NCBI GenBank assembly: GCA_011390165.1
Contig: JAABSV010000016.1
Span: forward strand, 1-64,000
DNA: 64,000 nt
From: Desulfobulbaceae bacterium
Lineage (GTDB): Bacteria > Desulfobacterota > Desulfobulbia > Desulfobulbales > Desulfocapsaceae
Reading direction: 5' to 3'
In this document: positions 7,398-19,109 of the stretch, piece after piece
Layout of the letters: each line of letters begins with the position of its first letter
Numbering within the stretch: the first letter of the stretch is position 1
Translations under genes and position numbers: made by a program
The notes under the pieces: generated by a model
Database searches by the model: none
What the model was told of the DNA's origin: nothing
The model's input: the letters and a program-made list of their open reading frames with translations, nothing else

Positions 7398-8363
<966 letters not shown>

Positions 8364-8400
8364 ATGGCGTCGGGACCGGAGAGTAGAGGGAGACAGAACC

Positions 8401-9624
8401 GTGCCCACCGCTTTCAGCTGCCAATACCCACCCGGACTACAGGCCGATGTCGGCCGGCGCCTGCAGAAAGAGGCAAACTGGCTGCTCCGCGAGTGCGGGG
8501 TGGCCGACCACCACCTGGCAGTCCGGCTGGTCGACGATGCCGAAATGAGCCGGCTGAACGGCCTCTACCGACACCAGGCAAAACCCACCAACGTCCTGGC
8601 CTTTCCCCTTGTCGACTGGGCCGACAGCGCCGCCGGCAACGCCGATGCCACCGCCACCCTGGCCGGTCTGCCGCTGCGGGAACTGGGTGATATCGTCATC
8701 TCCACTGATACCGCCCGGCGTGAGGCTGCCGAGTTGGGGGAGAACCCTGGCCGGCGGCTGAGCCGGCTGCTGACCCATGGCCTGCTCCACCTGCTCGGCT
8801 ACGACCACGAGCGTTCAAGGGAAGATGAGGAGGAGATGCTCGGCAGGGAAGAGGCCCTGCTGGGCCGACTGAACCAGTACCGGAGAACCATGATGACCAC
8901 ACTTGCCGTCAACGTCGACCACATCGCCACTATCCGCCAGGCCCGGGGAGGGCGGGAACCGGATCCGGTGGCCGCCGCCGCGATCTGCGAACTCGCCGGG
9001 GCCGCCGGCATCGTCGTCCACCTGCGTGAAGACCGCCGCCACATCCAGGACCGGGATGTCCACCTCCTCCGCCAGACCATCAAGAGCCGCTTGAATCTCG
9101 AGATGGGGGCGAACCGGGAGATTATCGCCATCGCCCTCGATCTGCAGCCGGATATTGTCACCCTGGTGCCGGAAAAAAGGGAAGAGCTCACCACCGAGGG
9201 CGGCCTTGATGTCGCTGGACAGAAAAAGAAGATTGGCAAGGTGGTTGAGAAGATGGGCAAGGCAGGCATCCCGGTGTCGATCTTCGCCGACCCGGAGGAA
9301 GGGCAACTGCGTGCGGCCAGGGACATCGGCGCGACCTTTGTCGAACTGCACACCGGCCACTACAGTGATGCCGGCAATGAAGAGGGACAGCTGCACGAGC
9401 TGCGGCTCATTGCCGAGGCGGCCCGGATGGCCGGCGAACTCGGTCTGCGGGTCTACGCCGGCCACGGTCTCAACTACCGCAACACCGCCGCGGTCGCCGC
9501 CCTGGAGGGTATCGAGGAACTCTCCATCGGCCATGCCATCATCGCCCACGCCGCCTTCGTCGGCCTCGACCAGGCGGTCCGCGAGATGCTGGCCATCGTC
9601 CGCCACGGCTCACTGAGCCTCTGA
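8401..9624 (+). CDS. ybeY-pdxJ: YbeY endoribonuclease fused in frame to PdxJ pyridoxine 5'-phosphate synthase
   Basis: One uninterrupted 407-codon frame holds two complete enzymes. Codons 1 to about 163 are YbeY, a zinc RNase for 16S rRNA 3' maturation, with the metal motif [11 protein letters not shown]. From codon 164 ([14 protein letters not shown]) the frame is PdxJ, a TIM barrel that makes pyridoxine 5'-phosphate in the DXP-dependent B6 route, with [14 protein letters not shown] at the start and ELHTGHY near the end. GTG 8401 is chosen because AGGGAG precedes it at about 10 bases. No stop codon separates the parts. The sequence CGGAGAACC just before the two ATGs at 8890/8893 could let PdxJ also be translated separately. 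phoH precedes it. Confidence 0.9.
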
Positions 9625-10140: not shown

Positions 10141-10773
10141 ATGCCCCGGCACTGCGCCCAAGGGCGAAGAAAGGGCATGGAAGAGTACCAAGGGCTCAAG
10201 TTTTCCTGCCGACAGAGCCGGATGGCCCTGCCCGACGACCTTCGGCTCCCCCGCCTTAACCACTGGGCCTGGCTCTTCGCCCAGCTCGGACTTGCCCCCG
10301 CCCATCCCGCTGGTGCCTACGGTAATCTCTCCTGCCGGAGCGAGGCCGACTCTTTTCTGATCACCCGGGCCGGAATGGCCCCGGCTGCCGACTTCATCCC
10401 GGACAACTTCTGCCAGATTCAGGGTTTCGACCAGGCGGACAGCTCTTTTCTCTACGCGGGCAAGCACCCCCCCTCATCGGAGAGCTACCTCCACTACCGG
10501 CTCTACCAAGCCCTGCCGGCCACCGCCGCCATCTTCCACGGCCACTGCCCCCTCTTCCATGAATTTGCCTCGGCCCTGGACATTCCTGAAACTGCCGCCT
10601 TCCACCCCTACGGCACCAGAGAGCTGGCCGAGTCCGCCCTCACCTTGGTGGCAGAGTGCCGGCCTCACTTCTTTCTCCTCCGCGAACACGGTTTTGTCGC
10701 CCTGGGCGACGATGTCGACACCGCCGGCCGGCTGACCCTTGACTGGCTCGGCAGACTTCTTAAACTACTCTGA
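10141..10773 (+). CDS. class II aldolase/adducin-like protein
   Basis: The 210-residue protein resembles the class II aldolase/adducin head fold, a zinc enzyme family acting on sugar phosphates. Possible zinc ligands are the histidines of IFHGHCPLFH and of LREHGFVALG near the C-terminus; the latter is the typical family ending. The substrate cannot be inferred. ATG 10141 and ATG 10177 (beginning MEEYQGLKF) are both preceded by purine-rich sequence; the second may be the true start. It stands alone between a tRNA and a secreted-protein gene. Confidence 0.65.
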   Translation: MPRHCAQGRRKGMEEYQGLKFSCRQSRMALPDDLRLPRLNHWAWLFAQLGLAPAHPAGAYGNLSCRSEADSFLITRAGMAPAADFIPDNFCQIQGFDQADSSFLYAGKHPPSSESYLHYRLYQALPATAAIFHGHCPLFHEFASALDIPETAAFHPYGTRELAESALTLVAECRPHFFLLREHGFVALGDDVDTAGRLTLDWLGRLLKLL

Positions 10774-10819
10774 CCGACGGCCTTTTTCTTTCTCAGCAAC
10801 CATCTCCGGAGGAGCAAAT

Positions 10820-11443
10820 ATGAAAAAATTATGTACCGGCCTGGTCTTTTCCCTGCTGATCGCGGGGACGGTTCAGGCGCAAAGTGTGCAGGAAGAGGTG
10901 ATTGGCAGCCTGACCACCGCCGAGCAGCTGGTCACCACCGGCAAGTACAGCAAGGCGATCGAGGAGATCAACTACGCCCTGGCCAAGATCAACGAACTGA
11001 CCGCCGAGGAGATGCTCAAATACATCCCGGCGGCGCCCCAAGGCTATGCCCTGGTCAACAAGCAGTCCCAGGGGGTAGGCGCCGCAGCTGCCATGGTGGG
11101 CACCGCTGGGGCCAGTGCCCAATACAGTGACGGGGCGACATCGACCATAGACCTGAACATCGCCATCGGGGGGATGAGCGGCAAAATGGCCGGCTTTGCC
11201 GCCCTCGGCTCGATGTTCGCCGCTCTCGGCCAGGACAGCGGTGCCGGGCAGAGCCGCCAGGTGCGGGTCCAGGGATACACCGGCACCGAGACCTTCAACG
11301 CCGCCCAGAAGAGCGGATCCCTCACCTTTCAGATCGGCGACAAGACCTCGGTGACCATAGAGGGGACGGGTATTGCCTCGGCTGATATTCTCATGCAACT
11401 GGCCAAGGGTATCGATATGGCCGGAATCAACAATAATTTCTAA
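10820..11443 (+). CDS. secreted protein of unknown function
   Basis: Not recognised. The 207 residues begin with a clear Sec signal peptide (MKKLCTGLVFSLLIAG, cleavage near VQAQ). The mature part starts with a helical segment rich in Glu and Lys (about 25-70, TPR-like in composition). A Gly/Ala-rich hydrophobic stretch follows (about 90-150, AAAAMVGTAGA and KMAGFAALGSMFAAL), then a short beta-rich tail with Thr/Ser. The start is fixed by GGAGGAG 7 bases upstream. It appears to be a single-gene unit ending in a hairpin. Periplasmic or outer-membrane-associated location is likely. Confidence 0.75.
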   Translation: MKKLCTGLVFSLLIAGTVQAQSVQEEVIGSLTTAEQLVTTGKYSKAIEEINYALAKINELTAEEMLKYIPAAPQGYALVNKQSQGVGAAAAMVGTAGASAQYSDGATSTIDLNIAIGGMSGKMAGFAALGSMFAALGQDSGAGQSRQVRVQGYTGTETFNAAQKSGSLTFQIGDKTSVTIEGTGIASADILMQLAKGIDMAGINNNF

Positions 11444-11740: not shown

Positions 11741-12217
11741 ATGGAAAAAAAGAGTTCCATACCACCAGCCAACCGACAGGAAGAGGGTTTGAAACCCCCT
11801 CCCCTGATGCGGCGCACCCATCTGCAACACGACACCTACCTCAGCTGCTGGTGCCCCCATTGCGGGGTCGGTCTCAACGAGGGGGACAGGGCTGTTTTCG
11901 AGATTACCAACAACGAGGGGGAAGTCGGGGTGAGCAGAGTCGCCGCCTACCTGAATGTGCTGGAACAGGAAAGCACGTTGCACGTAGACGATGATGAGGA
12001 ACTGGCCGATGTACGCTGCCCCCACTGCCGTGTCTCGCTGATCGAACCGGGCCAGCTCTGCCGGGAGGACGGCTGCAAACTGGTGGGCATCGAGGTGTCG
12101 ATTTCCAACTCGAAAAGGTTAAGACTGATCAGCTGTATCCGCCGTTCCTGCCGCTGGTACACGATGAGCGAAGAGGACAATGAACGGCTGATTTTACGGG
12201 ATAGTCATGAGTGGTAA
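11741..12217 (+). CDS. zinc-ribbon protein heading the Rnf locus
   Basis: Not a named family to my eye. The 158 residues hold two CxxC knuckles in each half: CWCPHCG (about 37-43) and CPHCRVSL (about 93-100), with further Cys at CREDGC and at CIRRSCRWY near the C-terminus. A zinc ribbon or rubredoxin-like metal site is likely. There is no signal peptide or membrane segment, so the protein should be cytoplasmic. It overlaps the start of the octaheme cytochrome gene by 11 bases, so it is almost certainly co-translated with it. A role in Rnf assembly or regulation is only a guess. Confidence 0.75.
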   Translation: MEKKSSIPPANRQEEGLKPPPLMRRTHLQHDTYLSCWCPHCGVGLNEGDRAVFEITNNEGEVGVSRVAAYLNVLEQESTLHVDDDEELADVRCPHCRVSLIEPGQLCREDGCKLVGIEVSISNSKRLRLISCIRRSCRWYTMSEEDNERLILRDSHEW

Positions 12218-12833
12218 TCTTCCGGACCGACAGAACTGGACCCCTGCGCTGACCGTTGTCCTCCTGCTGGCCATTGCCGCAGCCGCAGTCGGCTACATGG
12301 TCGACGGCAACGCCACCGGCACGGATCGCCTCTATCTGCAGAACACAGCCGGACCGGTGCTTTTTGACCATGCGGCCCACAGCCAGCAGGCCGAATCCTG
12401 CGCCGTGTGCCATCACCCCCTCTACAGTGCGGCAGAGGCGGTCTCCTGTGCAGAATGCCATGGCGAACGGCCGGAAACGGATCAGGCCGACCATCGCCGT
12501 ATCCAGGAAATGCACGGTGGTGACTGCAGCCTCTGCCACCAGGAGACGCAGGGCGAGGCAAGCTCCTGCCGGCAATGCCATCCCAGCCGGCAGGAAGAGG
12601 AAACCTCGACAGTCGCCTGCACCACCTGCCACGATGACGGGTACTCTGCCGAAATGCTCAGCCATGACGAGTACCAGGACATCGCCGAACATTCCTGTCT
12701 CGGCTGCCATGCCCCTCAGGCCCTCGCCGACATCTACCATAGTAACTGTTCCGGCTGTCACCTGCAGCAAGCACCGCAGAGATTCTCTCAGGCCGGTGAC
12801 GAGGTGCGGTGTGGGGCTTGCCACGTACCTTGA
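12207..12833 (+). CDS. membrane-anchored octaheme c-type cytochrome of the Rnf locus
   Basis: The 208-residue protein has one N-terminal membrane helix (about 13-31, ALTVVLLLAIAAAAVGYMV) that should anchor it with the heme part in the periplasm. Eight CxxCH motifs are visible: CAVCH, CAECH, CSLCH, CRQCH, CTTCH, CLGCH, CSGCH and CGACH. Several further His residues can act as distal ligands, as in class III cytochromes. It directly precedes rnfC, as multiheme cytochromes do in some Desulfovibrio and Methanosarcina rnf operons. The inferred role is electron exchange between Rnf and a periplasmic pool. The last motif ends two residues from the stop. Confidence 0.92.
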   Translation: MSGNLPDRQNWTPALTVVLLLAIAAAAVGYMVDGNATGTDRLYLQNTAGPVLFDHAAHSQQAESCAVCHHPLYSAAEAVSCAECHGERPETDQADHRRIQEMHGGDCSLCHQETQGEASSCRQCHPSRQEEETSTVACTTCHDDGYSAEMLSHDEYQDIAEHSCLGCHAPQALADIYHSNCSGCHLQQAPQRFSQAGDEVRCGACHVP

Positions 12834-12843
12834 GAAAACCACC

Positions 12844-14163
12844 ATGAGCCTCTTTGCACAGCTGTTCAGCAGCAGACCGATATTGCCCGCCGTACCGGAC
12901 TATGACCCGGTTATCCGCCAGGTCGAGGAACCGGATATGGTGGTGATCCCCCTGGATTACCCACGACATATCAACTATCTGCCGACAGTCGAGGCCGGAG
13001 AGAAGGTCCGCCGGGGCGGGGTGATCGGCCGCTCTCGTCTGGGCAACTGCAAGTTGGCCAGTATCAGTGGCAAGGTGCGGGAGATCACCACCGTCTGGAC
13101 CGCCCAGAGTGTCCACTCCCCCGCCATCGTCATCGAAAACGACGGTGGCGAGGGGCTCTCCCCGGAAGAGATATTCACCGATCAGCTCCCCCCCGACAAC
13201 CCCGTCGCCGCCCTTGCCAGAATCCGCAGTGCCGGGGTGAACCCGCCCTGGCGCTTGTCCGGGCGTGATTACGGCGAGGAGGATATCTCCGGCCTGCCAC
13301 CGCTGGAGGCTGTGGTCGTCACCGGCATCCAGGAAGAACCGACTATCCTCACCTCCCAACTCCTTCTTGCCCAGAACCCCGACAAGGTGGCGGAGGGGCT
13401 GCGACGGATCGGCCGGCTGTTGCCGGAGACCCCGCTCTGGCTCACCGTCCCGGAGAAAGAACTTGCCTGGGCGGAGAAGCATTTTGCCGGCCTGGCACGC
13501 ATCGCGGCCGTGCCGGCGCAATACCACGGCCGCCTGGAGCGGGAGCTGGTCGCCCGGCTGCTGGGGCGGCGGATCCCCAACCGGAACAGTTTCATCAGCC
13601 ACGGCATCGTGGTGCAGGATGTCGAGTACCTGCTGGCCATGGTCGATGCCCTGGACGGGACCTCCCCGTTTCTCGACAAATGCCTGACGATCAGTGGCAC
13701 AACCCTGGCGAAAGCGATCACCGTCCGCTTTCCCCTGGGCAGTTCCCTGCGGCATGTCCTCGCCAGCCAGGGGTTGCAGGTAGCCGATTTCACCCGGCCG
13801 GTGGTCGGTGGCCCGATGAAGGGAGTAGCCCAGTATTCGGACCTCACCCCCCTCACCTATGACAGCGGCATCTATCTGGTCAGCGAAGATCTCACCCCAT
13901 TTGATCCGATTGCCCCCTGTATCTTCTGTGGTCGCTGTACCCGGGTCTGCCCCGCCCGTATTCAGGTACACCTGATCAATCGGATGATCGAATTCGGGCA
14001 GATCGAATCGACCGGAAGCCTCCACCCGGAGGCCTGCCACGAATGCGGGCTATGCGCCCATGTCTGCCCGGCGGAACGCCCGATCGTGCAACTCCTCCAC
14101 TTCTGCAACCGGGAAATGACCCACGGCGAGCGGTACAGTTGGCCGGAAAGAGGCAAACAATGA
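12844..14163 (+). CDS. rnfC: RnfC, peripheral iron-sulfur/flavin subunit of the Rnf complex
   Basis: Cytoplasmic-side subunit of the ion-pumping ferredoxin:NAD+ oxidoreductase, which contacts NADH. The 439 residues carry the N-terminal RnfC domain, an NQO1-like nucleotide/SLBB region, and two [4Fe-4S] motifs near the C-terminus, CIFCGRCTRVCP and CHECGLCAHVCP. The frame is open far upstream through the cytochrome gene, but ATG 12844, 10 bases after the cytochrome stop, gives the expected N-terminus. Its stop overlaps rnfD as ATGA. Confidence 0.95.
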   Translation: MSLFAQLFSSRPILPAVPDYDPVIRQVEEPDMVVIPLDYPRHINYLPTVEAGEKVRRGGVIGRSRLGNCKLASISGKVREITTVWTAQSVHSPAIVIENDGGEGLSPEEIFTDQLPPDNPVAALARIRSAGVNPPWRLSGRDYGEEDISGLPPLEAVVVTGIQEEPTILTSQLLLAQNPDKVAEGLRRIGRLLPETPLWLTVPEKELAWAEKHFAGLARIAAVPAQYHGRLERELVARLLGRRIPNRNSFISHGIVVQDVEYLLAMVDALDGTSPFLDKCLTISGTTLAKAITVRFPLGSSLRHVLASQGLQVADFTRPVVGGPMKGVAQYSDLTPLTYDSGIYLVSEDLTPFDPIAPCIFCGRCTRVCPARIQVHLINRMIEFGQIESTGSLHPEACHECGLCAHVCPAERPIVQLLHFCNREMTHGERYSWPERGKQ

Positions 14164-15155
14164 AAGAGTTGAAGATGTTCCAGCCGGCCCGGGCAACGGA
14201 TCCGGGAATGCTCGACGTGGCGGTCGGCCCCCACTGCCGGCTGGGTACCGGTCTGGCCCGGGTGCAGCAGCGCTGGGTTCTCGCCCTGCTGCCGGCCATT
14301 GCCGGCAGCCTCTACCTCCTCGGCCCTGCCGCCCTGCGTGTCTTCGGGCTGTCGGTGCTCTTTGCCCTGCTCTTTGATCTGGTTGCCGAACGGCTGGCCC
14401 CCTCACGTGATCTCACCTCCAACTGGAGCAGTGTCTCCCTGGCCCTGCTGCTCGCCTTCATGCTGCCGCTTAACGCACCCTGGTGGCTGATCATGATGGG
14501 GTGTTTTTTCATGGTGGTCGTCGGCAAGAAACTGTTCGGCGGGGTTGGCGCCTACCCGGCCCAGCCGGCAGTTCTCGGGGTGGCGATTCTGCAGCTCTCC
14601 TGGCCGGGGCGAATGGACAACACCGCCGCCATGCTGCATATGGACTGGCAGGTGACCATGATCGAGCCGCTGCGGTTGCTGAAGTCGATGGGCGGCACCG
14701 CCGAATCGCATTACCAGTGGACCGATCTCCTCCTCGGCCGGCAGGTGGCCGGCACCGCTGACGGGATGGTGCTTCTTCTCCTCCTCGGCGGGCTCTTTCT
14801 TCTGCTGCTCCGCGAGATCCAGTGGCAGCTGCCGGTCGGTTTCCTCATCGGTCTGTTGACCACCGCCACCCTGCTGCACCTCGCCAACCCGGAGGCCTTC
14901 GCCTCGCCCCTCTTCTATCTGCTCAGTGGCGGGACGGTGTTCATGGCCCTCTTTCTGATTACCGACCACACCACCTCTCCGGTGAACAGGGTTCCGATGC
15001 TCCTATCGGGCATATTGGCCGGCGTCCTGCTCATGCTTATCAGGGGGTATGCAAAACACCCCGACGGCCTCGTCTATGCCGTTCTCCTGGTCAATCTCTG
15101 TTCGCCGCTGCTGGATATGATCAAGCCGCAAGTAAAGGGGGCGAAAGATGTCTGA
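14160..15155 (+). CDS. rnfD: RnfD, membrane subunit of the Rnf complex
   Basis: The 331-residue integral membrane protein of the NqrB/RnfD family has about nine hydrophobic helices and the conserved loop LITDHTTSPVN, typical of the second half of RnfD. In characterised Rnf complexes this subunit carries covalent FMN and helps form the ion path. The ATG is embedded in the rnfC stop (ATGA), and the 3' end overlaps rnfG by 8 bases, so translation is tightly coupled. Confidence 0.94.
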   Translation: MKELKMFQPARATDPGMLDVAVGPHCRLGTGLARVQQRWVLALLPAIAGSLYLLGPAALRVFGLSVLFALLFDLVAERLAPSRDLTSNWSSVSLALLLAFMLPLNAPWWLIMMGCFFMVVVGKKLFGGVGAYPAQPAVLGVAILQLSWPGRMDNTAAMLHMDWQVTMIEPLRLLKSMGGTAESHYQWTDLLLGRQVAGTADGMVLLLLLGGLFLLLLREIQWQLPVGFLIGLLTTATLLHLANPEAFASPLFYLLSGGTVFMALFLITDHTTSPVNRVPMLLSGILAGVLLMLIRGYAKHPDGLVYAVLLVNLCSPLLDMIKPQVKGAKDV

Positions 15156-15747
15156 AATTGTCCGCATGGTCGTGGTGCTTTCCCTGATTGCGGCGATCTG
15201 CTCGGCGGTCCTCACCTTCGCCCATCAGGGCCTGGGGCCGCGGATTGACCAGCAAACCGACCTCTATGTGCGCGGCCCGGCGTTGGAGCGGCTTTTCGGC
15301 AAACCGGCGACGGAGGTTTTGCACAACAAGGTGGTGATCGCCGTCGGCGACCAGGCCATTCCGGTCTTTTTTGCCCGGGAGGGGGATAGGGTCTCGACCA
15401 TTGCCGTGGAGGCAACCGGCAAGGGCGGCTTCGGCGGTGACCTCAAGCTGATGGTGGGCGTTGACCTCGACGCCGGACAACAGACGGGGATGGAGGTGGT
15501 CAGCCACAGCGAAACCCCGGGACTTGGCGCCCGGATCGACGAGATCAGCTTTCGCCGTCAGTGGCAGGGGTTGCCCACCGATACCCCGGTGGCCCTCACC
15601 AAGGATGGCGGGAAAATCGACGCCATCAGTGGCGCAACCACCACCTCGCTGGCCGCCGTCGGCGGAACCAACGAGGTAATCCGGTTTCTGCGTGACCACA
15701 AAGAAGAGATTGTCCAGGCAATCGCCAAACGTGAGGCTGGCTCATGA
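15148..15747 (+). CDS. rnfG: RnfG, FMN-carrying subunit of the Rnf complex
   Basis: The 199-residue protein has one N-terminal membrane helix (about 5-24) and a periplasmic FMN-binding domain. The flavinylation motif D-x-x-S-G-A-T ends at Thr164, the residue expected to receive FMN from the ApbE transferase. No apbE gene lies in this window, so it must be supplied from elsewhere. The gene overlaps both rnfD (8 bases) and rnfE (ATGA). Confidence 0.95.
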   Translation: MSEIVRMVVVLSLIAAICSAVLTFAHQGLGPRIDQQTDLYVRGPALERLFGKPATEVLHNKVVIAVGDQAIPVFFAREGDRVSTIAVEATGKGGFGGDLKLMVGVDLDAGQQTGMEVVSHSETPGLGARIDEISFRRQWQGLPTDTPVALTKDGGKIDAISGATTTSLAAVGGTNEVIRFLRDHKEEIVQAIAKREAGS

Positions 15748-16364
15748 GCAAGGGAAAACTGGGGGCAACACTGACGGCCGGTCTGTGGAAACGATTACCC
15801 CCCTTCCGTCTGGTTCTCGGACTCTGCCCGTCACTGGCGGTGACCACCTCGGCGGAAAACGGGCTCGGCATGGGGATCGCTCTGGCCCTGGTGGTAACCA
15901 TGTCCAACGGCATCATCTCCGCCCTGCGGAAACTGATTCCGGCCAAGGTGCGCATCGCCTCGTACATCGTCATCATCGCCACCCTGGTCTCCATTGTCGA
16001 AACGCTCATGAAGGCCTACTTCTTTCCGCTGTCTGAGCAACTTGGTATCTACATCCCGCTGATCGTGGTGAACTGCATCGTTCTCGGTCGGGCTGAAGGC
16101 TTCGCCGCCAAAAATCCCCCCCTTCTCTCCATGGCGGACGGCCTGAGCGTCGGCATCGGCTACACCCTCTCCCTCACCCTGATCGGCTCGATACGGGAAA
16201 TTCTCGGGGTCGGTTCGTGGTTTGGCCTCCCTGTCTTCGGGGCCGCCTTCGAGCCCCTGGCCTTTCTCGTCCTGGCACCGGGAGCCTTCATCACCATCGG
16301 CATCCTCCTCGGCATACAGAATCTCTTCTCCCGCTGGCGCGGGGAAAAATTCGTTCAAGGGTAG
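15744..16364 (+). CDS. rnfE: RnfE, membrane subunit of the Rnf complex
   Basis: The 206-residue polytopic protein of the RnfE/NqrD family has about six helices. Recognisable family segments are GLCPSLAVTTSAENGLGMG near residue 30 and the highly conserved VNCIVLGRAEGFAAKN near 110. RnfE and RnfA form an inverted-topology pair that holds an intramembrane iron-sulfur centre. It overlaps rnfG by 4 bases and is followed by rnfA after 9 bases. Confidence 0.95.
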   Translation: MSKGKLGATLTAGLWKRLPPFRLVLGLCPSLAVTTSAENGLGMGIALALVVTMSNGIISALRKLIPAKVRIASYIVIIATLVSIVETLMKAYFFPLSEQLGIYIPLIVVNCIVLGRAEGFAAKNPPLLSMADGLSVGIGYTLSLTLIGSIREILGVGSWFGLPVFGAAFEPLAFLVLAPGAFITIGILLGIQNLFSRWRGEKFVQG

Positions 16365-16373
16365 AAAACATTC

Positions 16374-16949
16374 ATGGATCTATTGTACCTGGCCATCTCG
16401 GCAACCTTCGTCAACAACATCCTTCTTGCCCAGTATCTCGGCCACTGCCCGTTCCTCGGGGTGTCGAAACGGATTGAAACCGCCCTCGGCATGGCGGCGG
16501 CAATCATCTTCGTCACCATCCTCTCGGCTATCTTCACCTGGACGGTGCTCACCTACGCCCTGATTCCTTACGGCCTCGAATTTCTGCAGACCCTCACCTT
16601 CATTCTCATCATCGCTTCCCTGGTCCAACTGGTCGAGATACTGATGAAGAAAAAGAGCCGCAGCCTCTACAACGCGCTGGGGGTCTATCTTGCCCTGATC
16701 ACCACCAACTGCGCCGTGATGGGCGTGGCCCTGCTCGTCGCCCGCGAGGAACTGGGCTTTATCGAGATGCTGGTCTTTGCCACCGCCAGTTCCTTCGGCT
16801 ACGCCCTGGCCCTGCTGCTCTTTGCCGGCCACCGTGAACGTCTGCAGATCTCAGCCATCCCGAAAAGCATGCAGGGTACGGCCATTGCCCTGGTAACCGC
16901 CGGCATCATGTCTCTGGCCTTTATCGGCTTTCAGGGAATGGCCAGTTAA
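16374..16949 (+). CDS. rnfA: RnfA, membrane subunit of the Rnf complex
   Basis: The 191-residue protein of the RnfA/NqrE family has about six membrane helices. The conserved features are VNNILLAQYLGHCPFLGVSK near the N-terminus and ALITTNCAVMGVALL in the middle, each with the Cys used for the shared iron-sulfur site with RnfE. The downstream partner, the RnfB fusion, begins 18 bases later. Confidence 0.96.
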   Translation: MDLLYLAISATFVNNILLAQYLGHCPFLGVSKRIETALGMAAAIIFVTILSAIFTWTVLTYALIPYGLEFLQTLTFILIIASLVQLVEILMKKKSRSLYNALGVYLALITTNCAVMGVALLVAREELGFIEMLVFATASSFGYALALLLFAGHRERLQISAIPKSMQGTAIALVTAGIMSLAFIGFQGMAS

Positions 16950-16967: not shown

Positions 16968-19109
16968 GTGATCACCCCCATTTTACTGCTCACCGGAATC
17001 GCCTTTGTCGCGGCCATAGTTCTCGGCATATCGGCTCGGGTCTTTTTTGTCGACGAAGACCCGAGAATTGAGGCTGTCGCCAACCTCCTCCCCGGCGCCA
17101 ACTGCGGCGGTTGCGGCCAGGCCGGCTGCAACGCTGCCGCCGAATCGATAGTCAAGCGCAAAAGTGAGGTCAATATCTGCGTGGTCGGTGGCATCGAAAC
17201 GGCCGAATCCATCGGCGCTTACCTCGGCTACGATGTCCGCGGCGCCGAGCCGATGCTGGCCTGCTCCACCTGTGAGGGAGGATACCGGGCCGCTCGCAAA
17301 TACCACTACACGGGATTGCAGGACTGTCGGGCCGCCCTGCAGCTCTTTCATGGCTTCATCCGCTGTGAAAACGGCTGCCTCGGCCTCGGTTCTTGCCAGC
17401 GGGCCTGCCGCTTTTCGGCGATCCGGATGGATCCCGACAGCGGTCTGCCGGTTTTCGACCCGGACCGCTGCGTCGGCTGTGGCAGTTGCATCGCCGCCTG
17501 CCCCAAGGGGATAATTTCCCTGGCCAACGAAAACACGAAAATACTCCACTGGAACCAGTATACCCAGTGTCTCTCGCCCTGTCGGCAGCGCTGCCCGGCC
17601 CAGATCGACATCCCCAAATATCTCGCCCAGGCCAGGCGTGGCGAGTATGGCGCCGCCCTGATGACCATCAAGGACAAGAACCCGTTGCCGGTGGCAACAG
17701 GCCGGGTCTGTCCCGAATTGTGTGCTACCCAGTGCCGGCGGAACCTCAAGGATGACCCGCTGGCCATCAATTCGGTAAAACGCTTTGTCTCCGACTGGGA
17801 ACGAAGCAACAAAGTGCGGATGCCGGTGGCGGTGGCCCCCGATACCGGCCTCCGGGTTGCCGTGGTCGGCGGTGGCCCGTCCGGGCTCTCCGCCGCCTAC
17901 TACCTGCGAAGACTCGGCCACGCCGTCGAGATTTTTGAAATGATGCCGAAACTGGGCGGTATGCCCCGCTACGGAATTCCTGACTACCGTCTCTCCGACG
18001 AGCAGCTCGACTGGGACGTTGATGGCGTCCTGGAACTTGGCGTGCAAGCCCATACCAATGTCACCCTCGGCAAGGATTTCACTATCCAGTTCCTGCGTTC
18101 GAACGGTTTTGACGCGGTCTATCTGGCCATCGGCGCCTGGCACGGCCGACTCCTCCCCCTGGAGGGCAAGGAGTTGACCGGTATCTACAGCGGCATAGAT
18201 TACCTCCGCCGGTTCCATACCGACGAGGAGAAGATTACCGGCAAACGCTTTGTGGTGATCGGTGCCGGCAATGTGGCAATGGATTGTGCCCGCTCGGCCC
18301 TCAGGGCCGGAGCGGAGAGTGTCCTCTTGATTTTCCGTTTCTCCCGCGACCTGATGGAGGCCAACGCCCATGAAATCAACGATGCCGAGAGCGAAGGGGT
18401 GGTCATGCGCTGCCTCGTTTCACCGGTTCGTTTTCTCGGTGAGGAAGGGCGGCTGAACAGCATCGAGGTGCAGCAGGTGACCCTGCGCCATTCTGCCGGT
18501 GGTGGGCTCCCGGATGTTATCCCGGTTGAGGGGAGCAACGAGGTGCTCCCCTGTGATGTGGTTATTCAGGCAGTCGGCCAGGCCGCCGATCTCGCCGCCA
18601 TCGTCGCCGCTGATGGACTGGCAAAGACCCGTTACCACACCATCGATGCCGACGAGGAGACGCTGCAGACATCAATCCCCGGCGTATTTGCCGGCGGCGA
18701 CTGTTACACCGGGCCACGCCTTCTGGTCGAGGCGGTCGCCTCCGGCAGGTTTGCGGCCCGATCGATCCATTACTACATGACCACCGGCGAGATTCCGGCA
18801 ATCAAGGAGAGACAACGCGAGATGATGGCGCCGGCCCTGATTGATGACCTGACCAATGTGGTGCCGATACCAACCATGGCCATAAAACCGATGGTACCCG
18901 TCGAGGAGCGGATGGCCTCCTTCCGCGAAGTTGAAGGAACCATCAACGAAGATCAGTGCCGCCTGGAGGCGACACGCTGTCTGAACTGCGGCATCTACTG
19001 CTACGATCAGGATGATCTGCCGGCGGAACTCATGCGCAAGGCCATCTCCTGCCCCAACGAACCACATCTCGTGGCGGAGGAGGAGAGGGAGAAGGAACCG
19101 GCTCTCTGA
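16968..19109 (+). CDS. rnfB: RnfB fused to a GltD/NfnB-like FAD-NAD(P) oxidoreductase
   Basis: The 713-residue protein is far longer than ordinary RnfB (usually 180-330). Residues 1-25 are the RnfB membrane helix. The Fe-S domain GANCGGCGQAGC (44-54) and ferredoxin clusters CENGCLGLGSCQRAC (about 133-147) and CVGCGSCIAACP (168-179) follow. From about 195 the protein is homologous to the glutamate synthase small subunit and NfnB: CLSPCRQRCPAQ (201-211), FAD site VGGGPSG (300-306), NAD(P) site IGAGNVAMD (431-439), AGGDCYTGP (575-583) and a C-terminal CLNCGIYC (671-678). The GTG start has AAGGAG at 8 bases. It may join ferredoxin and NAD(P)H chemistry directly to the Rnf membrane arm. Confidence 0.95.
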   Translation: MITPILLLTGIAFVAAIVLGISARVFFVDEDPRIEAVANLLPGANCGGCGQAGCNAAAESIVKRKSEVNICVVGGIETAESIGAYLGYDVRGAEPMLACSTCEGGYRAARKYHYTGLQDCRAALQLFHGFIRCENGCLGLGSCQRACRFSAIRMDPDSGLPVFDPDRCVGCGSCIAACPKGIISLANENTKILHWNQYTQCLSPCRQRCPAQIDIPKYLAQARRGEYGAALMTIKDKNPLPVATGRVCPELCATQCRRNLKDDPLAINSVKRFVSDWERSNKVRMPVAVAPDTGLRVAVVGGGPSGLSAAYYLRRLGHAVEIFEMMPKLGGMPRYGIPDYRLSDEQLDWDVDGVLELGVQAHTNVTLGKDFTIQFLRSNGFDAVYLAIGAWHGRLLPLEGKELTGIYSGIDYLRRFHTDEEKITGKRFVVIGAGNVAMDCARSALRAGAESVLLIFRFSRDLMEANAHEINDAESEGVVMRCLVSPVRFLGEEGRLNSIEVQQVTLRHSAGGGLPDVIPVEGSNEVLPCDVVIQAVGQAADLAAIVAADGLAKTRYHTIDADEETLQTSIPGVFAGGDCYTGPRLLVEAVASGRFAARSIHYYMTTGEIPAIKERQREMMAPALIDDLTNVVPIPTMAIKPMVPVEERMASFREVEGTINEDQCRLEATRCLNCGIYCYDQDDLPAELMRKAISCPNEPHLVAEEEREKEPAL

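What the first reader, a model, noticed from the sequence alone, without database searches (positions are those of the whole stretch)
16968..19109. RnfB fused to a GltD/NfnB-like NAD(P)H flavoprotein
A single 713-residue product joins the RnfB iron-sulfur arm to a full FAD/NAD(P)-binding flavoprotein with its own N-terminal Cys cluster and a C-terminal Cys cluster. Ordinary RnfB ends after its ferredoxin clusters. The added part is homologous to the subunit that exchanges NADPH, NADH and ferredoxin electrons in Nfn and glutamate synthase. Together with RnfC, the complex would have two nucleotide sites, which could allow ferredoxin, NADH and NADPH to meet at one membrane ion pump.
Basis: partly seen in the sequence, partly recalled or inferred. 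Interest (0 to 1): 0.75.

Follow-up and report, generated by a model that had tools for sequence, protein, structure and literature searches.

The report
Rnf pump with relocated nucleotide site
In this bacterium one arm of the Rnf membrane ion pump is fused to a flavin enzyme that should bind NAD(P)H, while the pump's usual NADH-binding subunit has lost its site; the fusion was described before, but how the altered pump works has not been tested.

Summary
The fusion is real: one intact 713-codon frame joins RnfB to an NfnB/GltD-type flavoprotein, last gene of a cytochrome c-rnfCDGEA-rnfB operon; 9 of 57 genomes (own plus 56 relatives) hold it at 72-100 % identity. As a kind it is known: a Desulfococcus multivorans paper describes this 'Tol2-type' Rnf (large RnfB with NAD-binding sites, RnfC without its NADH part), mechanism unverified. 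RnfC here has lost the FMN/NADH loop but keeps both [4Fe-4S] motifs, so one nucleotide site remains, not two. All 32 distinct fused operons with a complete rnfC have such an RnfC; all 49 operons with intact RnfC and a local rnfB have ordinary RnfB. The module replaces RnfB's C-terminal ferredoxin pair, was probably gained once, and probably after RnfC lost its site. The NADP-marking YRR motif is FRF in the window's clade, so NAD(H) is likelier than NADPH. A branch of the family lost flavin and nucleotide motifs but keeps the module's cysteines. Best reading: an Nqr-like layout, nucleotide site on the RnfB arm, electrons exchanged with periplasmic cytochrome or quinone. The counts reflect one or two evolutionary events; function is inferred.

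The parts
16968..19109 (+). rnfB-flavoprotein fusion, 713 aa
16968..17537 (+). RnfB part: N-terminal helix (residues 3-25 in the model), first Fe-S domain (C46, C49, C54, C71) and one ferredoxin pair (C133-C178); the usual C-terminal ferredoxin pair is missing
17553..18788 (+). NfnB/GltD-type module: Fer4_20 iron-sulfur part, FAD and NAD(P) domains
17868..17885 (+). FAD motif GGGPSG (residues 301-306)
18261..18278 (+). NAD(P) motif GAGNVA (residues 432-437)
18333..18341 (+). FRF (residues 456-458) in place of the NADP-type YRR
18900..19052 (+). C-terminal EAxRCLxC segment (C671, C674, C678, C695), similar to the N-terminal segment of NfnB
12844..14163 (+). rnfC: Fe-S cysteines kept, FMN/NADH loop lost
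13240..13287 (+). place of the lost FMN/NADH loop in RnfC (residues about 133-148; 139-148 have pLDDT under 50)
12207..12833 (+). multiheme c-type cytochrome, 8 CxxCH, hydrophobic N-terminus
14160..15155 (+). rnfD
15148..15747 (+). rnfG (best NCBIfam score RnfG_DVU2794, 162 bits, under its 205-bit cut-off; TIGR01947 102.9 over 102)
15744..16364 (+). rnfE
16374..16949 (+). rnfA

Best explanation
This is a large-RnfB ('Tol2-type') Rnf complex whose only recognisable nucleotide site sits on the RnfB arm instead of on RnfC. Shown by sequence: RnfC keeps two [4Fe-4S] motifs but not the FMN/NADH loop; RnfB carries a module with intact FAD and NAD(P) motifs in place of its last ferredoxin pair; a multiheme cytochrome c opens the operon. 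Inferred: NAD(H) (rather than NADPH) and/or ferredoxin exchange electrons with the RnfB clusters, NAD(H) through the fused FAD; the membrane core RnfAEGD pumps ions; and the far end is a periplasmic cytochrome c (through RnfG) or menaquinone, not NAD+ on RnfC. The layout resembles Na+-NQR, where NqrF brings NADH in on the side of RnfB and the RnfC homologue NqrA has lost its cofactors. The pump could run either way. My estimates: single nucleotide site, on RnfB, 0.8; NAD(H) rather than NADP(H) in the window's clade 0.6; cytochrome or quinone as partner 0.45.
For: RnfC site loss: alignment to three solved RnfC and to four intact ones. The lost-site class is defined by absence of the loop motif and confirmed in a second alignment: 57 complete members lack the loop (three more are cut by a contig end), and 60 of 60 keep all eight Fe-S cysteines; intact ones read GGAxFP in 50 of 50. 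The window RnfC model has the RnfC fold, with low confidence where the loop was. Association: 32 of 32 distinct fused operons with a complete rnfC are of the lost-site class; 49 of 49 intact-site operons with a local rnfB have unfused RnfB. Of the 36 fused operons first counted, 18 came from the rnfC-driven sample. FAD and NAD motifs 9 of 9 in the window's clade. Multiheme cytochrome upstream of rnfC in 38 of 56 lost-site and 0 of 43 intact-site operons. Nqr parallel: PMC11889175 and PMC4014512 passages.
Against: No function was tested. The tree needs only two changes of the RnfC state, two of the fusion and four of the cytochrome; 1-2 independent pairs exist, so the associations are not replicated. 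18 of 56 lost-site operons show no cytochrome in the 2.5 kb searched. In D. alaskensis dhcA mutants had no fitness defect except in one experiment (PMC4215793 passage). 15 lost-site operons have ordinary RnfB, so site loss does not require the fusion. One fused branch has lost the flavin and nucleotide motifs, so the module can be kept for something other than NAD(P)H.
Confidence: 0.5

Rival explanations
1. Site transplant at the exit: the reaction is still ferredoxin:NAD(P)+ oxidoreduction. Electrons leave the membrane through the two [4Fe-4S] clusters of RnfC, as usual, and are handed to the FAD of the fused module, which lies next to RnfC and takes over the job of the lost RnfC FMN.
For: [quoted passage not shown] tetanomorphum complex (PMC9588780 passages). 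RnfC keeps all eight Fe-S cysteines in 60 of 60, as a relay should. FAD and NAD motifs are intact in 34 of 34 window-type and YRR-type modules but for one deviation in the FAD loop.
Against: The module follows the RnfB ferredoxin pair after about 20 residues, so ferredoxin electrons might reach NAD(P)+ without crossing the membrane. Eleven unfused lost-site operons of the same clade do without a fused module. It does not explain the cytochrome.
Confidence: 0.25
2. The fused flavin bifurcates, as in NfnABC or StnABC: NAD(P)H electrons split, one to ferredoxin and one through the Rnf core to a cytochrome or quinone.
For: Best structural and sequence matches are large subunits of bifurcating NfnABC and StnABC. 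R341 aligns with T. maritima NfnB R187, which bonds to N5 of the bifurcating FAD (PMC6405883 passages; alignment).
Against: R341 is kept in 19 of 19 modules that have lost flavin motifs, so it is not diagnostic. A NuoF-like partner with FMN is what RnfC has ceased to be.
Confidence: 0.1
3. One reading: two nucleotide sites (RnfC for NADH, RnfB for NADPH) meeting ferredoxin at one pump.
For: Homology of the module to NfnB/GltD; 26 of 53 fused modules keep YRR.
Against: RnfC has lost its loop in the window and in the 32 of 32 distinct fused operons with complete rnfC; FRF replaces YRR in the window's clade.
Confidence: 0.05
4. The module is mainly an iron-sulfur relay or docking platform for another soluble protein; nucleotide binding is secondary or being lost.
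For: In 19 fused modules eight cysteines are kept in 19, but the FAD GxGP[AS]G motif in 0, the xGD motif in 3 and the NAD motif in 1.
Against: In the window's clade FAD and NAD motifs are kept in 9 of 9, although YRR is not.
Confidence: 0.1

Closest known systems
Large-RnfB ('Desulfobacula toluolica Tol2-type') Rnf, as described for Desulfococcus multivorans Rnf2 (PMC5109826, passages)
   Same: RnfB of about 700 residues with NAD-binding sites; RnfC without the NADH-ubiquinone oxidoreductase part; a second, ordinary Rnf in the same genome (as in D. multivorans)
   Different: The window's module has FRF where 25 related fusions have YRR. That paper says the soluble-ligand-binding domain of RnfC is also lacking; here that stretch still aligns. 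The Tol2 paper itself was not seen
Canonical Rnf (A. woodii, C. tetanomorphum, A. vinelandii)
   Same: RnfA, D, E, G and the Fe-S parts of RnfB and RnfC; RnfC fold
   Different: No FMN/NADH loop in RnfC; RnfB lacks its C-terminal ferredoxin pair and carries a flavoprotein; cytochrome c in the operon
Na+-NQR
   Same: NADH/FAD module on the side of RnfB; RnfC homologue without FMN
   Different: NqrF is ferredoxin-reductase-like, the module here NfnB-like; NqrA also lost its Fe-S clusters, RnfC here keeps them
NfnABC / StnABC transhydrogenases
   Same: Closest module by sequence and fold, with the same C-terminal EAxRCLxC segment
   Different: No Rnf membrane subunits; paired with a NuoF-like subunit (recalled; the B chains appear among the RnfC fold matches)
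DsrL and GltD
   Same: NfnB-like flavoproteins using NAD(P)H
   Different: Other partners; DsrL has its own C-terminal ferredoxin domain (PMC7596348 passages)

Membership tests
Rnf complex | Contiguous rnfCDGEA-B genes with recognisable subunits | tested here: met
   RnfA, B, D, E, G each over a TIGR cut-off (RnfB 71.3 against 68.7); RnfC 164.2 against 245.95, below
Rnf complex | RnfC with FMN/NADH site | tested here: not met
Rnf complex | Ferredoxin:NAD+ oxidoreductase activity coupled to ion transport | not testable with these tools
   no assay; for D. alaskensis a vesicle assay was reported as unsuccessful (PMC4841214 passage)
Large-RnfB (Tol2-type) Rnf | RnfB of about 700 residues with NAD(P)-binding flavoprotein | tested here: met
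Large-RnfB (Tol2-type) Rnf | RnfC lacking the NADH-binding part | tested here: met
NfnB | NADP-type YRR motif | tested here: not met
   FRF at 456-458
NfnB | Arginine at N5 of the bifurcating FAD | tested here: met
   R341; also kept where flavin motifs are lost, so not diagnostic
NfnB | Flavin-based electron bifurcation | not testable with these tools
   no spectroscopy or assay
Na+-NQR | Ferredoxin-reductase-like NqrF subunit | tested here: not met
   the flavoprotein is NfnB/GltD-like

The most novel reading that the evidence does not exclude
In a large group of Desulfobacterota Rnf has moved its nucleotide site from the exit subunit (RnfC) to the entry arm (RnfB): RnfC site loss, then one gain of an NfnB-type module, then in one branch loss of that site too, so that these pumps no longer make or use NADH at RnfC but connect NAD(H)/ferredoxin, or ferredoxin alone, with periplasmic cytochromes or quinone. 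It would be an independent, half-way counterpart of the change from Rnf to Na+-NQR.
Probability: 0.35. Interest if true: 0.75.

Novelty: new member of a known kind. Interest (0 to 1): 0.5.

Why it matters
The papers on sulfate reducers whose passages I saw write Rnf as a ferredoxin:NAD+ pump, with PMC5109826 as the exception for its Tol2-type. If the RnfC site is gone in a large part of this group, energy budgets and mutant phenotypes need another electron partner for the pump. It also makes testable how an ion pump can change redox partners by swapping end modules while the membrane core stays the same.

Tried and rejected
Artefact or frameshift: rejected, nine genomes share the intact frame. 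Fusion as novelty: rejected after PMC5109826 passages. Two nucleotide sites: rejected. Bifurcation from R341: weakened, since R341 is kept in the flavin-less branch. A phylogeny-aware test of cytochrome against RnfC loss had 1-2 independent pairs and says nothing.

Of 151 loci examined, 115 had RnfC, D, E and A and were used; the other 36 lacked at least one (listed), among them fused genes on short contigs or without rnf neighbours. In three of the 115 (L172, L199, L213) the script had taken the rnfE frame for rnfA too; one search repeats the tree without them, without L214-L216 (doubtful, no rnfB) and without L167 (identical to L038): 108 rows, same two changes for RnfC and fusion. In three fused operons (L035, L041, L062) rnfC is cut by the contig end, so the loop cannot be judged; 36 fused operons thus become 32 distinct ones with a judged RnfC. 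L199 and L213-L216 were also left out of the counts. Operons whose contig ends within 2.5 kb upstream of rnfC were left out of the cytochrome test (4 lost-site, 7 intact). The 53 fused modules leave out six whose flavoprotein match was under 330 residues in one piece (L044, L050, L051, L053, L062, L074). L062 (Salidesulfovibrio) has its gene split into overlapping frames and was classed 'fusLo' for that reason alone.

Full report
OBSERVATION. The open frame at 16968-19109 (+) is 713 codons long with a GTG start and no interruption. Residues 2-192 match RnfB of C. tetanomorphum and A. woodii, and about 199-607 match NfnB/GltD-type flavoproteins; Pfam gives FeS, 4Fe-4S domains, Fer4_20 and Pyr_redox_2 in this order. 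Of 57 genomes searched (own plus 56 relatives), 9, in six genera by the tool's codes, hold a full-length copy at 72-100 % identity, and one of these has a second copy at 43 %. In the alignment all are continuous through the junction. The gene closes an operon: a cytochrome c with 8 CxxCH (12207-12833), rnfC, rnfD, rnfG, rnfE, rnfA, rnfB-fusion.

WHO CARRIES IT. Thirty-one of the 80 match across both the RnfB and the flavoprotein part, among them loci of Desulfosarcina, Desulfocarbo, Desulfobacula, Pseudodesulfovibrio and Salidesulfovibrio. Seventeen of the 31 have other rnf genes in the stretch held; a divergent set (L042-L051 except L046) shows none, four of its nine loci with about 20 kb held. 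The window's genome has a dsrA match over the cut-off, hence probably a dissimilatory sulfur metabolism, and a second, ordinary Rnf operon with a 309-codon RnfB frame and an intact RnfC (L020). I could not name the host; its phylum (Desulfobacterota) is inferred from the named relatives.

RNFC HAS LOST ITS SITE. Against three solved RnfC the window's protein lacks the glycine loop (GMGGATFP in C. tetanomorphum) and has an altered NAAECEP-type segment, while the two [4Fe-4S] motifs align. In a phylum sample 99 of 247 genomes had an rnfC-type match. I fetched 116 regions and added named loci, L017, L020 and the window: 151 loci, of which 115 showed RnfC, D, E and A. Counts: 49 intact RnfC with unfused RnfB, 1 intact without rnfB nearby, 36 lost-site with fused RnfB, 15 lost-site with unfused RnfB, 14 lost-site without rnfB nearby. 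On checking: three fused operons have rnfC cut by a contig end and one is a duplicate, leaving 32 distinct fused operons, all lost-site; five of the 14 are doubtful and one ends before rnfB. The lost-site class is defined by the missing loop motif; a second alignment confirms it, and 60 of 60 keep all eight Fe-S cysteines, as do 49 of 50 intact ones. Of the eight lost-site operons that truly lack a local rnfB, seven are in genomes with a fused RnfB elsewhere, 38-48 % identical to the window's; in G234 none was found. A model of the window's RnfC (pLDDT 80.6) has the RnfC fold, with residues 139-148, where the loop was, under pLDDT 50.

ORDER OF EVENTS. On the corrected tree of RnfD, E and A (108 rows, quick method) the RnfC state needs two changes and the fusion two. 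All fused rows lie in a lost-site clade of 54 rows (SH-aLRT 100; three of them with unjudged RnfC); inside it they form, with eight rnfB-less rows and three unfused ones near Desulfovibrionaceae, a set of 46 rows with moderate support (88), beside eight rows with lost site and ordinary RnfB. The flavoprotein parts of 53 fused proteins form one side of a branch against 67 unfused relatives (SH-aLRT 98). So: RnfC site probably lost first, module gained once, perhaps lost once. The window row is long (1.29) and the order rests on the 88 branch.

WHAT THE MODULE IS. It replaces RnfB's C-terminal ferredoxin pair: a CxxCxxC tail is present in 64 of 64 unfused RnfB and in 0 of 36 fused ones. A model of the fusion (pLDDT 79.4, pTM 0.79) is nearest to NfnABC and StnABC large subunits, then NfnB, then GltD. 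The C-terminal EAxRCLxC segment resembles the N-terminal segment of P. furiosus NfnL (a weak local match, -0.4 bits), which suggests relocated ligands of the distal cluster; this is inference. In NfnB, Y310-R311-R312 hold the 2'-phosphate of NADP, and DsrL-1 enzymes without YRR prefer NAD(H) (PMC7596348 passages). YRR is present in 66 of 67 unfused relatives and 26 of 53 fused modules; the window and its eight nearest have FRF. Their FAD and NAD motifs are intact, 9 of 9. A set of 19 fused modules keeps eight cysteines in 19 but the FAD loop in 0, xGD in 3 and the NAD motif in 1: apparently flavin-less modules that still hold their iron-sulfur sites. Six further fused proteins were not scored.

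CYTOCHROME. An ORF with at least three CxxCH lies within 2.5 kb upstream of rnfC in 38 of 56 lost-site operons and 0 of 43 intact ones. These are few independent events: the tree offers 1-2 independent pairs, too few to test.

MECHANISM. In canonical Rnf electrons go from ferredoxin through RnfB, the iron site of RnfA/E, FMN of RnfG and RnfD, riboflavin, the two clusters of RnfC and its FMN to NAD+ (PMC9588780 passages). Here the last step is missing in RnfC and a nucleotide site has appeared on RnfB. The nearest parallel is Na+-NQR: NADH enters at NqrF, in the place of RnfB, and NqrA has lost its cofactors (PMC11889175, PMC4014512 passages). I therefore favour NAD(H)/ferredoxin exchange at RnfB and a cytochrome or quinone at the far end, with relocation to the RnfC exit as main rival. 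For D. alaskensis, attempts to show an ion gradient coupled to ferredoxin oxidation and NAD+ reduction in vesicles were unsuccessful (PMC4841214 passage); [quoted passage not shown] Whether the Rnf of that strain has lost its RnfC site was not tested here.

LITERATURE. PMC5109826 (passages) reports the large RnfB with NAD-binding sites and the reduced RnfC for D. toluolica Tol2 (citing an earlier paper not seen here) and D. multivorans Rnf2, whose subunits it detected by proteomics, and says the mode of action awaits verification. PMC11434368 (passages) says many Desulfovibrionaceae lost rnfB and have an FAD-dependent oxidoreductase gene at the operon's end; in L024 (Pseudodesulfovibrio) such a gene is rnfB fused to the flavoprotein, so I suspect that those are fusions too. 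A 2025 review of RNF/NQR has no occurrence of 'fused', 'fusion', 'Desulf' or 'NADPH'. In the listings of my searches I saw no other account of the large RnfB; only the held open-access library was searched, listings are capped, and 15 papers were opened, all by passages.

Noticed in passing
L020 (own genome, contig C31): A second, canonical Rnf operon with intact RnfC and ordinary RnfB coexists with the window's Rnf.
   Followed up: partly
L039-L043, L045, L047-L049, L163, L186, L189, L190, L198, L200, L202, L207, L210, L212: Fused RnfB proteins that have largely lost FAD and NAD(P) motifs but keep the module's eight cysteines (L039 still reads YRR).
   Followed up: partly
L206, L208, L211: Operons near Desulfovibrionaceae rows in the tree with a 10-CxxCH cytochrome, unfused RnfB and an RnfC without the loop: no recognisable nucleotide site; no fused match at E 1e-90 in these three genomes.
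   Followed up: partly
window 8260-9624 (+): One 454-codon frame matches both YbeY and PdxJ: a fusion, or two genes in one frame.
   Followed up: no
L062: In Salidesulfovibrio brasiliensis the fused gene lies in two overlapping frames in the draft assembly.
   Followed up: no
G026:C55: A second copy of the fusion in pieces, besides an intact one on another contig.
   Followed up: no
G123:C16:66948-68696: A 600-codon frame similar to residues 101-682 of the fusion (a stop is counted inside the match), in a genome whose rnf operon has an unfused RnfB.
   Followed up: no
window 10739-11443 and 11741-12217 (+): Two frames upstream of the cytochrome without a Pfam match.
   Followed up: no
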